From NCBI GenBank assembly GCA_902774905.1, contig CACYKF010000001.1, positions 124,001 to 188,000 on the forward strand: 64,000 nucleotides of DNA. Direction: 5' to 3'. Below the pieces are notes generated by a model that was given only the letters and a program-made list of their open reading frames with translations, did not search any database and had not been told where the DNA came from. The DNA is from an uncultured bacterium. GTDB taxonomy: Bacteria; Cyanobacteriota; Vampirovibrionia; Gastranaerophilales; Gastranaerophilaceae. Positions within the stretch are counted from its first letter, which is position 1. Each line of letters starts with the position of its first letter. A program made the position numbers and the translations under genes. Below, piece after piece: positions 51,139 through 58,531 of the stretch.

Positions 51139-51172
51139 AAAGACCGAAAATTTAAATATTTTCGGTCTTTTA
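51139..51172. terminator. Bidirectional terminator
   Basis: AAAGACCGAAAAT and ATTTTCGGTCTTT form a long stem between the 50245 gene (+) and the WYL operon (-). Confidence 0.88.
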
Positions 51173-52114
51173 TTTATCTTCATACAATTCCAGAGTTTCA
51201 TTTATAAGATTAACCATATCATTTCTTATAAATTTCGGGGTAATAATTTCGCATAAATTTGTATATCTCATTAGCCGTGAAAACAACTTATCCAACGGTT
51301 CCCCCGAGTTACTTATAATTATTTCGCCGTCTTTTTTATCCTGAAGTTTCTCCCCGTCTTTGAGTTTGTATGTTTTAGCAAGTCTGCCTTTTAATTTATA
51401 AACAACAGTTGTAGTGCTTTCGTAACCTGAACTTCTGTTTGGAAGAATCTTAATTGATAAAATATTTGGCAGCGCAATTTCAATATTTTCTTTTTTTACG
51501 GTGTCATAAGCATTTAAGTAAGCCGTTTTTACATCATAAGTAACTTCTTTGGGTTTGCATTTTGAATGTATATCTTTATTTCTTTTTAAGTAGGTAATAT
51601 CTAAAATCACATTATCATTGCAATAATTTTTGCATTGCTCTATTTGGTCTTTTAAATCCGTATAGAAAAATGAAAAATCTTTTTTGGTACTTAAAAAATT
51701 AAATGTATTTTTATTGGAATTACACATCCTCAAAAACAGATTTGCCTTCAGTTTTTCAATATTTCCCGCAATATTTGCATCGGGGAGATTTTTACTTGCT
51801 CCGACAATAAGGCTCAATGCTTTTATATCACTTGCGCTATATTCAACAGAATAAAGGCTGCTTTCAAGTTTATATTTGTGCTTTTCTTTTCTGATTTTTA
51901 CTCCAAAAACCTTCAAGGCATTAATGTATTTGTTTATTACTACCTGAATCAGATTATTCAGTTTCTTTTCATCATAAACTTTACCGTCTTCAATAATGTC
52001 TGTTTTGAAAATATTATAAACGGCATTATAATCTGCTTCATCATTATACAAAAGCATAAGGAATCTGAAGATATTAATACATCCGTTATTAATTTTTAAA
52101 TTATTATTCTTCAA
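51170..52114 (-). CDS. WYL-domain regulator (second of pair)
   Basis: The 314 aa protein starts with a winged-helix-like region (INIFRFLMLLYNDEADYNAV) and contains a WYL-type domain in residues about 150-290 (VILDITYLKRN, YDVKTAYLNAYD, LPNILSIKILPN), although the WYL tripeptide itself is not kept. WYL proteins sense ligands or nucleic acids and control transcription, often of defence or stress genes. It overlaps the other WYL gene by 11 nt; the two may form a heteromeric regulator. Confidence 0.7.
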   Translation of the reverse strand: MKNNNLKINNGCINIFRFLMLLYNDEADYNAVYNIFKTDIIEDGKVYDEKKLNNLIQVVINKYINALKVFGVKIRKEKHKYKLESSLYSVEYSASDIKALSLIVGASKNLPDANIAGNIEKLKANLFLRMCNSNKNTFNFLSTKKDFSFFYTDLKDQIEQCKNYCNDNVILDITYLKRNKDIHSKCKPKEVTYDVKTAYLNAYDTVKKENIEIALPNILSIKILPNRSSGYESTTTVVYKLKGRLAKTYKLKDGEKLQDKKDGEIIISNSGEPLDKLFSRLMRYTNLCEIITPKFIRNDMVNLINETLELYEDK

Positions 52115-53048
52115 TGTATCCTTCTTTCATATTCTTTAGAATTGCGATAATTTCCTGCCTGTAATTTTCGGGAGAGAGTACTCTGCATTTGTTTGAATGA
52201 GATAAAATTCTTTGCATAATTGCAAATTTGTTGCGTGATTTTATTTCAACAATTACATGATTTTCTGTTTCTTCTGTAATTGTTTCTTCGTCATTTGGCT
52301 CAAACACAGTATTATCGTCTTTTAAATACTCATATTGTATAATGTATTCGGGAGATTCCAATTTTGGCGACTGCATATTTACGCTGACAATCTTAATAAT
52401 ATTAGAGACTAAAAATTCTCCATAGTTTTTGTATTCCGAATTATATCCGGTCAAATAAAGTTTCCCGTTTATAATACTCACTTTGTCTGTAATGATATCT
52501 ATTTCTTTTCTTTTGCCTGAATTTTTTGCATTATATAAAATTGTAATTTCTGTATTACTCTTTGCATATTTCATCAAATCCGATATTAAATCGTAATCAA
52601 TGTTATTTATCGGAGATAATTTTTTTAATTTTAACTTTAAATCTTCATTTGAAATATATGGAGAAATTTTATCAAAAAATGCATTAAGTTCGAGAAAATC
52701 AGATATTTCAATTGATTTTGAAATGGCTTTATATACTTTTATGATACTTTTCACTTGAGAATCGGATATTTTCAGGGTGAAGGGATGTGAATCAATGTAA
52801 TATTTAACGATTCTGCCTTCATTGATTCTTTTTATTTGGCAGCCTGCTTGTTTTAGAGAATTCATATAAATTCTTATTGTGTCTGTCGATACGGTTTCTT
52901 TTAAATACTCATTATTTTCAATTTCTTTTTTTATTTCAGCATAAGTTTTTGGACTATTTACAAGCAGGGAAAAAATGAGCATGGCTTTAAACCCGCTAAA
53001 TGACATGAGGTTATGAGTGATTGTATTTGTTTCCATGAATCGTTTCAT
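52104..53048 (-). CDS. WYL-domain regulator (first of pair)
   Basis: The 314 aa protein has an N-terminal winged HTH (LMSFSGFKAMLIFSLLVNSP, then TDTIRIYMNSLKQAGCQIKR) and a WYL-like domain in the second half (ITILYNAKNSGKRKEID, KLYLTGYNSEYKNYGEFLVS), again with a divergent core motif. ATG 53048 is preferred over TTG 53066 and ATG 53036; TTTTAGGT is upstream. The divergent region contains an apparent non-coding RNA that it could regulate. Confidence 0.72.
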   Translation of the reverse strand: MKRFMETNTITHNLMSFSGFKAMLIFSLLVNSPKTYAEIKKEIENNEYLKETVSTDTIRIYMNSLKQAGCQIKRINEGRIVKYYIDSHPFTLKISDSQVKSIIKVYKAISKSIEISDFLELNAFFDKISPYISNEDLKLKLKKLSPINNIDYDLISDLMKYAKSNTEITILYNAKNSGKRKEIDIITDKVSIINGKLYLTGYNSEYKNYGEFLVSNIIKIVSVNMQSPKLESPEYIIQYEYLKDDNTVFEPNDEETITEETENHVIVEIKSRNKFAIMQRILSHSNKCRVLSPENYRQEIIAILKNMKEGYIEE

Positions 53049-53245
53049 AAAATACCTAAAATTCAATATATTTATGGAAAAAGCATGCTAATCCCTTCAC
53101 ACTAATTTTATATTGTCAAATAAAATTTCGCAAAATATTTACAAGATTTCATTAAATTTTCTTCATTAAGATTTTATAACACGAATTTTGTTTTACTCTA
53201 TCAAAGGGCATGGTCTATTGTAAAAAAATAATAATTTTTTTTTAC

Positions 53246-53274
53246 TTGTAATCATGGAAAATTAGGTCTAAATT
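53246..53274 (+). promoter_or_regulatory. Candidate promoter of the intergenic RNA
   Basis: TTGTAA, a 17-nt spacer and TAAATT, each 4 of 6 to consensus, place a start near 53281. Confidence 0.35.
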
Positions 53275-53280
53275 TAAAGA

Positions 53281-53622
53281 CATAGAAAGCAAGCCAATAA
53301 GAAAAAGGCTGCCGGATAGTTTAGGGGGGTGACCTTTGGGATAGGTCATTTTATAAGGTAAGTAACAAAAATAGTGAGTATGAAGAAAGAACAGAGGTGA
53401 TGGCTAAGTAGTTTGGAAAGGGAAAGAGATAATTGAACGAGATTTTGGAAGATAAGAGATTTAGGGATAAGTTTTAACAAAATAAATAATTATAAAAGAT
53501 AAATAAAGTTTCATTTTATATATCTGGTTTATTAGGGAGTAAAGTAAAAAACTTTAAGAAGAGAGTAAATAGGATAGTTGTAAACTTCAATATAGTCTGT
53601 ACCGAAAGTACAGACTTTTTAT
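53281..53622 (+). ncRNA. Candidate structured, purine-rich non-coding RNA
   Basis: No reading frame of useful length exists here. The plus strand is strongly purine-rich, especially 53370-53475, has hairpins AGCC/GGCT (about 53292-53310), TGACCT/AGGTCA (53330-53348) and AAAGT/ACTTT (about 53540-53554), and ends with a clear intrinsic terminator. A candidate promoter lies just upstream. I find none of the signatures of tmRNA, SRP RNA or RNase P. It fills most of the gap between the WYL operon and rbfA. Confidence 0.4.
53594..53621 (+). terminator. Intrinsic terminator upstream of rbfA
   Basis: AGTCTGTAC CGAAA GTACAGACT followed by five T. No protein gene lies on the plus strand immediately before it, so it implies an upstream non-coding transcript. 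Confidence 0.88.
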
Positions 53623-53644
53623 TTAATAAAAATATGTATTTTCA

Positions 53645-56671: not shown

Positions 56672-58531
56672 ATGAATAATAAAATGATAGATTTGGATAA
56701 TTTTTGCCGTATGCTTTCCGTATCAGTTGCAACTGGAAAAAATTGGCTTAAACTTGGCAAAATCATTCCTTCAAAAATTGAGGGACGAAAGGTTTATTTT
56801 AATGAAGAATATTGTCAAAAACTCCTAAATAGCCTTAATGACAATGAAAATAGCAACCTCAAAAGCCGCCGCAATAAGAAATTTAAATCAGGCTTTAATT
56901 TGTATAAATCATATATTTCAAAAGATTCAAAGAATTTATCAGGAATTGAAAACCTCATACAATATTTTGAAAAAAATAATATTGTATTGAAACCAAACGA
57001 AATATCCGAACTTGTTGCATATTATTCCAAAATTCTGGTAAAATCAGCATTCGGCAAAGAATATAACAAATACAAATATCTCTGTGAAGAAATTTCAAAC
57101 ACGGACAAAACAATATTAAAATACCCTGCCATAAAAGGTTTTAAACCTGTTTATGAACAGAATGAGGATATATTGGGGCTTTTATATATGTCTTTGAATA
57201 ATATATTAAGCCGAAAGTCGCACGGTGCATACTTTACGCCGACTGATATAGTAGAAAAACTTATTAAAAATACATTCGAAAATTATAGCGGCGGTACAAT
57301 ATCTGACCCCTGCTGCGGAAGCGGAAATTTTATTCTGCATTTGCCGCAAAATATTTGTGTTGAAGATATTTTTGGCGCTGATATTGACGAATTGAGCGTA
57401 AAAATAGCACGAATAAATTTTGCACTAAAATACAAAATTTACGATGAAAATTTTATTTATGAACATATAAAAATCCAAAATTTTCTGACCTGTTCAAACA
57501 AACAAAAATTTGATTATATAATCGGAAATCCCCCTTGGGCGTATGAGTTTAATGAAGAAGAAAGAAAAATTCTCAAAAACAATTTTAAAACAGCACAAAC
57601 TTCAGCCATTGAATCTTATGATGTAATAATTGAAAAAGCACTTCAAAAATTGAATAATAACGCAACATTATCTTTTGTATTGCCGGAAGCGGTTCTTAAT
57701 GTAAAAAGCCATAAAACTTTGCGTGAAATAGTTGCCCAAAAAACTTCGGTTAAATATATCGAATATTTAGGAGAAACCTTTGACGGAGTACAATGTCCAA
57801 GCGTAATTTTGCGGATTTTATATAACAATAAAACATTTAATTCAAAAGGATTGCAGGTTAAAACAAAGAATAAAACATTTACCATAAATACAAATAGAAA
57901 AATTACACCTGAAATTTTTGATTTTAACTGTGATGATGCAGAATATGAACTTCTGCAAAAAATAGAAAATATACCAAATAAAGTAACATTGAAAGACAAT
58001 GCTGTTTTTGCGCTTGGAATTGTTACAGGAAACAATGAAAAATATCTTTCAAAGACAAAAAATTTAAATAATGAAGCCATAATAAAAGGAACCGATATTG
58101 AAAAATTTGGGATAAAAACACCTGAAAATTATATAGTATTTAAACCTGACAGTTTTCAACAATGCGCTCCGCAAAGTGTGTTTCGTGCAAAAGAAAAACT
58201 TATTTATAAATTTATTTCAAAAAAACTTGTCTTTGCTTATGACGATAAACAAACGCTAACCCTGAACAGTTGCAATATTCTCATTCCTAATATTAAAGGA
58301 CTTGATATAAAATACATTTTGGCAATTTTAAATTCTGATATTGCACAATTCTATTTTGAAAAGAAATTTAATTCCGTAAAAGTTTTGCGCTCACACCTTG
58401 AGCAAATTCCGATACCGTATGTTGATAATCAATTACAAAAACCGATTATTGACTTGGTAAACAAGATTATGTCACAAAACAACAACAATTTTATTACAGA
58501 ATTAAATTTAAAAATAAGGGATTTGTATTAA
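56672..58531 (+). CDS. Solitary N6-adenine DNA methyltransferase (TaqI/Eco57I-like)
   Basis: The 619 aa protein has an N-terminal excisionase/MerR-like HTH (DNFCRMLSVSVATGKNWLKL), a methylase core with motif I ISDPCCGSGNFILHL, motif IV IIGNPPWAYEF, and a C-terminal target recognition part (LAILNSDIAQFYFEKKF, VLRSHLEQIPIP) like TaqI/type IIG enzymes. No nuclease motif or separate endonuclease gene is visible. It may be an orphan epigenetic regulator or a remnant of a defence system. A GAGGT is 15 nt upstream of ATG 56672, a long spacing. Confidence 0.85.
   Translation: MNNKMIDLDNFCRMLSVSVATGKNWLKLGKIIPSKIEGRKVYFNEEYCQKLLNSLNDNENSNLKSRRNKKFKSGFNLYKSYISKDSKNLSGIENLIQYFEKNNIVLKPNEISELVAYYSKILVKSAFGKEYNKYKYLCEEISNTDKTILKYPAIKGFKPVYEQNEDILGLLYMSLNNILSRKSHGAYFTPTDIVEKLIKNTFENYSGGTISDPCCGSGNFILHLPQNICVEDIFGADIDELSVKIARINFALKYKIYDENFIYEHIKIQNFLTCSNKQKFDYIIGNPPWAYEFNEEERKILKNNFKTAQTSAIESYDVIIEKALQKLNNNATLSFVLPEAVLNVKSHKTLREIVAQKTSVKYIEYLGETFDGVQCPSVILRILYNNKTFNSKGLQVKTKNKTFTINTNRKITPEIFDFNCDDAEYELLQKIENIPNKVTLKDNAVFALGIVTGNNEKYLSKTKNLNNEAIIKGTDIEKFGIKTPENYIVFKPDSFQQCAPQSVFRAKEKLIYKFISKKLVFAYDDKQTLTLNSCNILIPNIKGLDIKYILAILNSDIAQFYFEKKFNSVKVLRSHLEQIPIPYVDNQLQKPIIDLVNKIMSQNNNNFITELNLKIRDLY

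What the first reader, a model, noticed from the sequence alone, without database searches (positions are those of the whole stretch)
53246..53622. Orphan purine-rich transcript candidate next to a WYL regulator pair
Directly visible: about 340 bp without a coding frame, strong strand bias toward purines, local hairpins, a candidate promoter and an isolated intrinsic terminator that no protein gene needs. It is divergent from two overlapping WYL regulators. It lacks signatures of tmRNA, SRP RNA and RNase P. Inference: a new structured or sponge-like RNA, possibly controlled by or controlling the WYL proteins.
Basis: partly seen in the sequence, partly recalled or inferred. Interest (0 to 1): 0.6.

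Follow-up and report, generated by a model that had tools for sequence, protein, structure and literature searches.

The report
Orphan RNA conserved across a lineage
A stretch that looked like an unexplained transcript beside two regulator genes belongs to an uncatalogued RNA gene found once per genome across most of a family of gut and rumen bacteria, with an unusually conserved switch region and a core that could pair with the ribosome.

Summary
The stretch is an unannotated RNA gene (control region 53145-53274, RNA about 53281-53624, + strand) with no Rfam match. Its 3' motif is in 40 of 46 genomes of the genus. A 130-bp control region ending at its promoter is in 231 of 286 genomes sampled from the order, nearly always once; every match listed lies in one family. 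All 20 loci read far from WYL genes carry the same core. The order WYL pair / RNA / anmK is clade-specific, so the RNA is not a WYL accessory. Length varies from about 95 to 350 nt. The core GAGGUGAUGG is exact in 91 of 93 close relatives. A stem closing the core's loop covaries between genera, but not in the window's own clade. All core variants can pair with the 16S anti-Shine-Dalgarno tail (tail recalled). 6S and tmRNA are elsewhere in the genome, RNase P elsewhere in the window; CsrA is absent from the genus. I read it as a new trans-acting RNA family, possibly ribosome-contacting. The mechanism is inferred; transcription is not shown.

The parts
53145..53274 (+). Control region of the RNA gene: direct repeat TTCATTAA (53149 and 53163), GGGCATGGTCNATTGTAAA box (53206-53224), AT palindrome GTAAAAAAAT..ATTTTTTTTTAC (53220-53245), promoter
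   Evidence: Alignment A5: 32 loci from 12 genera, all 129-131 bp, mean column identity 83%; model R1 hits own genome at C1:177146-177274 = window 53146-53274; coordinates
53246..53274 (+). Promoter: -35 TTGTAA (53246-53251), 17-nt spacer, -10 TAAATT (53269-53274)
   Evidence: TTGN3-17-TAN3T in 93 of 93 loci; not found by the consensus scan
53281..53624 (+). The RNA (5' end inferred about 7 nt after the -10; not mapped)
   Evidence: Homologues in 31 same-genus genomes aligned and in sister genera; no reading frame
53307..53313 (+). GGCTGCC, proposed 5' strand pairing with GGU-gau-GGC of the core (helix H2)
   Evidence: RNAalifold on A1, every pair kept in 31 of 31 but only by one-sided changes; motif upstream of the core in 83 of 91 against 7.9 in shuffles
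53312..53317 (+). CCGGAT, possible 5' partner of AGTTTGG (53410-53416) in the window's own clade
   Evidence: RNAalifold on 9 own-clade sequences; competes with H2
53394..53404 (+). Core motif GAGGTGATGGC, complementary to the 16S anti-Shine-Dalgarno tail
   Evidence: GAGGTGATGG exact in 91 of 93 near loci; variants in 20 of 20 far loci; duplex energies
53461..53468 (+). Conserved block TTAGGGAT
   Evidence: Invariant or nearly so in A1; pattern with the core in 47 of 286 order genomes, no hit for the reversed control
53534..53555 (+). Conserved GGGAGT followed by AAAGT..ACTTT hairpin
   Evidence: A1, A2
53572..53587 (+). Most conserved 3' motif GGATAGTTGTAAACTT
   Evidence: 40 of 46 genus genomes, 34 of 34 of the good-quality ones
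53594..53624 (+). Intrinsic terminator of the RNA
   Evidence: compensatory changes in the stem; hairpin plus T run in 71 of 93 loci by the script's rule
52104..53066 (-). wylA, WYL/WCX regulator, divergent neighbour (clade-specific neighbour, probably not part of the RNA unit)
   Evidence: Pfam WCX in 14 of 18, WYL in 8 of 18 family members; Foldseek best hits DriD and PafBC
51170..52114 (-). wylB, second WYL-type regulator overlapping wylA
   Evidence: WCX in 14 of 20 members; Foldseek best hits DriD, PafBC

Best explanation
It is a free-standing gene for a regulated, trans-acting noncoding RNA of a family not in Rfam, carried once per genome by most genera of one bacterial family. Shown by comparison: a 130-bp control region of fixed geometry, a sigma-70-type promoter, a variable purine-rich body with a few invariant blocks, and an intrinsic terminator in most genera. 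Supported outside the window's own clade: the invariant core GAGGUGAUGGC sits in the loop of a covarying stem; an upstream GGCU[AG]CC can pair with the same core and would form a pseudoknot with that stem. Inferred: when induced, the RNA exposes the core, which pairs with the anti-Shine-Dalgarno tail of 16S rRNA (or engages a protein that reads that motif) and so touches the 30S subunit, while the upstream strand masks the core in the resting state. The WYL pair may regulate it in this clade but is not a constant partner.
For: Conservation and copy number; fixed 129-131 bp control region; promoter 93 of 93; stem covariation: stem score 11.09 against 8.88 when 3' flanks are swapped between genera, 0 of 500 swaps as good, 91 sequences; consensus fold better than all 100 column shuffles in two clades with the terminator removed; core duplex with the tail averages -13.2 kcal/mol against -8.9 for the best other site in the same RNA and -7.6 for shuffled cores, core best in 108 of 111; a ribosome-linked precedent exists: OLE RNA carries a mimic of the SD/anti-SD duplex and binds bS21 (PMC12054373, passages read).
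Against: No expression data. The 16S tail was typed from recall; no 16S gene was found in this MAG. Among random substitutions of the core, 9-27% pair as well as each of the 8 observed variants, so retention of pairing is only weakly significant. The stem in the tested place is not supported in the window's own clade (13 sequences, 425 of 500 swaps as good) nor in genus g22 (11 sequences). H2 shows only one-sided changes and 8 of 91 lack the upstream motif. One locus (G205) has the control region but no core, another (G265) is cut by the contig end.
Confidence: 0.4

Rival explanations
1. A trans-acting RNA whose conserved blocks are read by an unknown RNA-binding protein or by mRNA targets, with no ribosome role; the likeness to a Shine-Dalgarno sequence is chance in a purine-rich RNA.
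For: Other blocks (TTAGGGAT, GGATAGTTGTAAAC) are as conserved as the core and do not pair with the tail; the pairing-retention test is weak.
Against: The core beats every other 14-mer of the same RNA in 108 of 111 and each sequence class keeps a similar energy.
Confidence: 0.3
2. A cis-acting leader or attenuator of the downstream gene, usually anmK.
For: anmK-like gene follows in most near genera and in 9 of 20 far loci; no terminator by rule in 9 of 10 g20, 6 of 6 g21 and 4 of 4 g26 loci; in g19 the RNA runs into anmK.
Against: Downstream gene is rbfA in the window, secD in g34/g38, deoB-like in g36/g41, others elsewhere; a terminator closes the RNA in 71 of 93; by eye, anmK has its own promoter (TTGCAT-17-TATTAT, ATG a few bases on) overlapping the terminator.
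Confidence: 0.12
3. A minigene: the core is a start region (SD, AUG or GUG, Ala/Val codon) for a 2- to 5-codon ORF that acts by being translated.
For: Frame-0 ORF of 4 codons or fewer in 55 of 111 against 23 and 25 in the other frames, shuffles 31.7 +/- 4.7; AUG to GUG changes in g34, g35, g36.
Against: Length ranges from 2 to 36 codons with no conserved peptide; spacing from SD to AUG is only 2 nt; one locus has ACG; the count is not corrected for relatedness.
Confidence: 0.1
4. An RNA that works with the WYL pair (as its ligand, or as its only target).
For: Divergent from wylA in 32 of 33 same-genus loci checked and in the sister genera read; the direct-repeat element has no second match in 8 of 9 same-genus genomes, the ninth (G002) having the locus twice or not at all by genome; both proteins resemble the nucleic-acid-sensing activators DriD and PafBC; genus g33 lacks close matches to both wylA and, nearly always, the control region.
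Against: In 20 of 20 far loci the control region and core are not beside wylA; families f2-f7 have wylA-like genes but no listed control region.
Confidence: 0.12
5. A diverged housekeeping RNA (6S, tmRNA, SRP RNA, RNase P).
For: None beyond length.
Against: RNase P in the window, 6S and tmRNA elsewhere in the genome; SRP RNA found as a separate gene upstream of this RNA's control region in one genus (L205); no Rfam match in 20 representatives.
Confidence: 0.01

Closest known systems
OLE RNA (with bS21)
   Same: A structured orphan RNA carrying a Shine-Dalgarno-like strand that can pair inside the RNA with a partner strand, proposed link to the 30S subunit (PMC12054373, passages read).
   Different: OLE RNAs are about 600 nt and mostly in Bacillota (same paper's abstract); no Rfam hit here; binding of bS21 not tested.
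CsrB/RsmZ-type sponge RNAs
   Same: Purine-rich RNA with several GGA sites and a terminator.
   Different: CsrA absent from 25 of 25 same-genus genomes searched; conserved blocks are few and unlike each other.
6S RNA
   Same: Stand-alone, single-copy RNA of some hundred nt.
   Different: A separate 6S candidate exists in 37 of 40 genomes, own included (own match below gathering score).
PafBC and DriD (for the neighbouring WYL pair)
   Same: HTH-WYL-WCX type fold by Foldseek, adjacent pair as for PafB/PafC.
   Different: Sequence identity 8-15%, no test of ssDNA binding; the RNA is not a constant neighbour.

Membership tests
Any Rfam 15 family | Match at or above gathering score | tested here: not met
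   Window, 641-nt stretch with permissive filters, 20 representatives of other genera
tmRNA, 6S, RNase P | Would be the genome's only copy | tested here: not met
   Other loci carry them
CsrA sponge | CsrA present in the host | tested here: not met
   0 of 25 same-genus genomes; 12 of 15 other-family genomes have it
Riboswitch or leader | Constant downstream gene in the same transcript | tested here: not met
   Downstream gene varies; terminator in 71 of 93
Small protein mRNA | Conserved reading frame | tested here: not met
   Frame-0 ORF 2-36 codons, no conserved peptide
Structured noncoding RNA | Covarying base pairs beyond chance | tested here: met
   Stem around the core, 0 of 500 cross-genus swaps as good; not met in own clade and g22 at that position; column-shuffle test met in own clade
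OLE-like ribosome-linked RNA | Binding to 30S or bS21 | not testable with these tools
   Only complementarity computed
WYL-controlled RNA | WYL protein binds its control region | not testable with these tools
   Synteny only

The most novel reading that the evidence does not exclude
A lineage-wide, tightly regulated RNA that silences or tunes the ribosome: its core clamps the anti-Shine-Dalgarno tail of 16S rRNA in 30S subunits, and a pseudoknot masks the core until a signal or the ribosome itself opens it. This would be an RNA counterpart of a hibernation factor.
Probability: 0.2. Interest if true: 0.85.

Novelty: new variant of a known kind. Interest (0 to 1): 0.57.

Why it matters
It adds a single-copy RNA gene, kept across most genera of one family, to a group of gut bacteria with little described RNA biology: two full-text searches that paired the order's name with 'small RNA' or 'noncoding RNA' found only two papers each, none of them on its regulatory RNAs by title or abstract. 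The 130-bp control region is kept at fixed length while the RNA itself varies threefold, which is unusual and makes a dedicated signal-response RNA likely. If the core does pair with the 16S tail, it would be a testable case of an RNA that controls translation initiation directly.

Tried and rejected
CsrA sponge: rejected, CsrA absent. Known housekeeping RNAs: rejected. Cis leader of anmK: demoted, the downstream gene varies. RNAalifold on all 31 genus sequences found only H2 and the terminator; on 25 main-clade sequences it found one 4-bp helix, though still better than all column shuffles. Unrestricted stem search was weaker than the position-restricted one (own 12.88, swaps 11.95, highest swap 12.75). 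A regulon for the control region: second R1 hits in 13 genomes were weak; those read in G000, G015, G030, G033, G063 and G078 look like coding sequence and show no core, while the hits of G261 and G290 that were read are the RNA locus itself. K-mer multiplicity: GATAGTT-like repeats exist in some g18 RNAs but are mostly single in the genus. Naming the organism: records found are unnamed rumen or gut MAGs, RUG13741 is not in the taxonomy; that this is Gastranaerophilales is my inference from recall, no call names it. Literature for an RNA that pairs with the anti-SD tail: listings only, plus passages of two papers. A literature search on Melainabacteria with riboswitch or Rfam gave nothing on the lineage.

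Rows dropped before counts: of 95 loci, 2 (G151, G289) lacked the anchor box and left 93; G016 (contig end), the second G002 copy and duplicate loci were left out of the 31. The far-core variants were defined after reading the 20 loci, so 20 of 20 is not blind.

Full report
WHAT IS THERE. On the + strand between the divergent WYL genes and rbfA lies a promoter (TTGTAA-17-TAAATT, 53246-53274), a purine-rich non-coding body and an intrinsic terminator (53594-53624). Rfam has no match, neither at gathering score nor meaningfully with permissive filters. The window is C1:124001-188000 of a 1.99-Mb MAG.

CONSERVATION IN THE GENUS. The DNA of 53240-53630 found matches in 37 of 59 relatives. The 3' motif GGATAGTTGTAAACTT, with up to one mismatch, is in 40 of 46 genus genomes and in 34 of 34 of those at least 90% complete and at most 5% contaminated. 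In 31 aligned homologues 52 columns are invariant, clustered in AGAGGTGATGG, TAGGGAT, AGAG.G and GGATAGTTGTAAAC.T. wylA is next to it in 32 of 33 loci checked, whereas rbfA is next to it only in the window's genome and three near relatives. The downstream neighbour is therefore not the constant.

BEYOND THE GENUS. Upstream regions of wylA in sister genera (g18, g20-g28) show the same unit, with an RNA of about 95 to 350 nt. In 93 loci, TTGN3-17-TAN3T is present in all (TTGTCA 53, TACATT 57) and a terminator by rule in 71; the 22 misses are 9 of 10 g20, 6 of 6 g21, 4 of 4 g26, plus G031, G109 and the contig-cut G265. The core GAGGTGATGG is exact in 91 of 93; G205 lacks it and G265 is truncated.

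THE CONTROL REGION. The stretch from the TTCATTAA direct repeat to the -10 box is 129-131 bp in 32 of 32 loci aligned, with 83% mean column identity. A sequence-only model of it (R1) finds 231 of 286 genomes of the order and 34 of 50 genera; no genome of families f2-f7 is among the matches listed. Second matches in 13 genomes re-searched are weak, and those read lie in what looks like coding sequence. The direct repeat alone hits this locus only, in 8 of 9 same-genus genomes searched.

NOT A WYL ACCESSORY. Twenty R1 loci from thirteen other genera were fetched. In all 20 the promoter is followed by a core of the form RGTGRYGGY: GAGGTGATGG, GGAGTGATGG, GGGGTGGTGG, GGAGTGGTGG, GGAGTGACGG or GGGGTGATGG. 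The variants were defined after reading them. None has wylA as its neighbour; neighbours include anmK, secD, deoB-like and other genes. wylA-like genes exist in 276 of 286 order genomes, also where the RNA is not found. The two WYL proteins themselves are ordinary members of the DriD/PafBC fold; PafBC and DriD are ssDNA-triggered activators (PMC11804915 and PMC12340889, abstract starts in the search listing).

STRUCTURE. Around the core a stem recurs at fixed distances (9-15 nt before, 4-9 nt after): UUGGAC/GUCCAA, CGGAC/GUCCG, AGGAC/GUCCU, AUCGGA/UCCGAU, UAAGA/UCUUA and others. Own stems score 11.09, cross-genus swaps 8.88 +/- 0.30, 0 of 500 as good (91 sequences). Main genus clade (27) and other genera without g22 (40) are each 0 of 500. 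The window's own clade (13) gives 425 of 500 and g22 (11) gives 254 of 500, so there the stem is not supported at that place. In the own clade RNAalifold pairs CCGGAU with AGUUUGG instead; with the terminator removed, its consensus fold is better than all 100 column shuffles (-7.4 against -1.2 +/- 1.4; main clade -4.3 against -0.5 +/- 0.8). An upstream GGCU[AG]CC can pair with GGU-gau-GGC of the core (31 of 31 pairs kept, one-sided changes only) and the motif occurs upstream in 83 of 91 against 7.9 in shuffles. With the stem this would be a pseudoknot; that is inference.

THE CORE. The invariant GAGGUGAU is the complement of the bacterial 16S 3' tail (tail recalled; no 16S gene found in this MAG). 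The core-tail duplex averages -13.2 kcal/mol over 111 RNAs, the best other 14-mer of the same RNA -8.9, shuffled cores -7.6; the core is best in 108 of 111. Distant variants keep -10.6 to -14.1. Against this, random substitutions of the core reach each observed energy in 9-27% of trials, so retention alone is weak evidence. The core also reads as SD-AUG-Ala with an early stop (55 of 111 within 4 codons; other frames 23 and 25), but the spacing is 2 nt and the peptide is not conserved.

PRECEDENT. OLE RNA carries a mimic of the SD/anti-SD duplex in P6, binds bS21 there, and needs it for stress phenotypes (PMC12054373, passages read). That makes a ribosome-linked orphan RNA reasonable, not proven here.

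VERDICT. A real, new, lineage-wide RNA gene (I would put about 0.9 on that alone); mechanism open, with a ribosome-contacting RNA as the leading guess. The link to the WYL pair is local to one clade.

Noticed in passing
L205:1763-2021 (genus g29): Bacterial large SRP RNA (RF01854) ends about 40 nt before this RNA's control region, so the two are separate neighbouring genes there.
   Followed up: partly
window 56672-58531: Adenine-specific DNA methyltransferase-like protein (TIGR02987, below cut-off; also weak PglX-like) upstream of two tRNAs and RNase P.
   Followed up: no
L035, L161 and other loci with anmK downstream: anmK appears to be leaderless or nearly so, with a promoter (TTGCAT-17-TATTAT) whose -35 lies in the arm of the RNA's terminator (read by eye).
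   Followed up: no
same-genus genomes: CsrA is missing from 25 of 25 same-genus genomes but present in 12 of 15 genomes of other families of the order.
   Followed up: no
G002 C22 and C52 (L022, L003): The locus occurs twice, nearly identical, in a genome with 8% contamination; probably a duplicate contig.
   Followed up: no
L190: Record titled Muribaculaceae bacterium carries this lineage's wylA and RNA contig; probably mislabelled or mis-binned.
   Followed up: no
L125 (G205, genus g45): Control region intact but the RNA core is absent, a possible decayed or strongly diverged copy.
   Followed up: no
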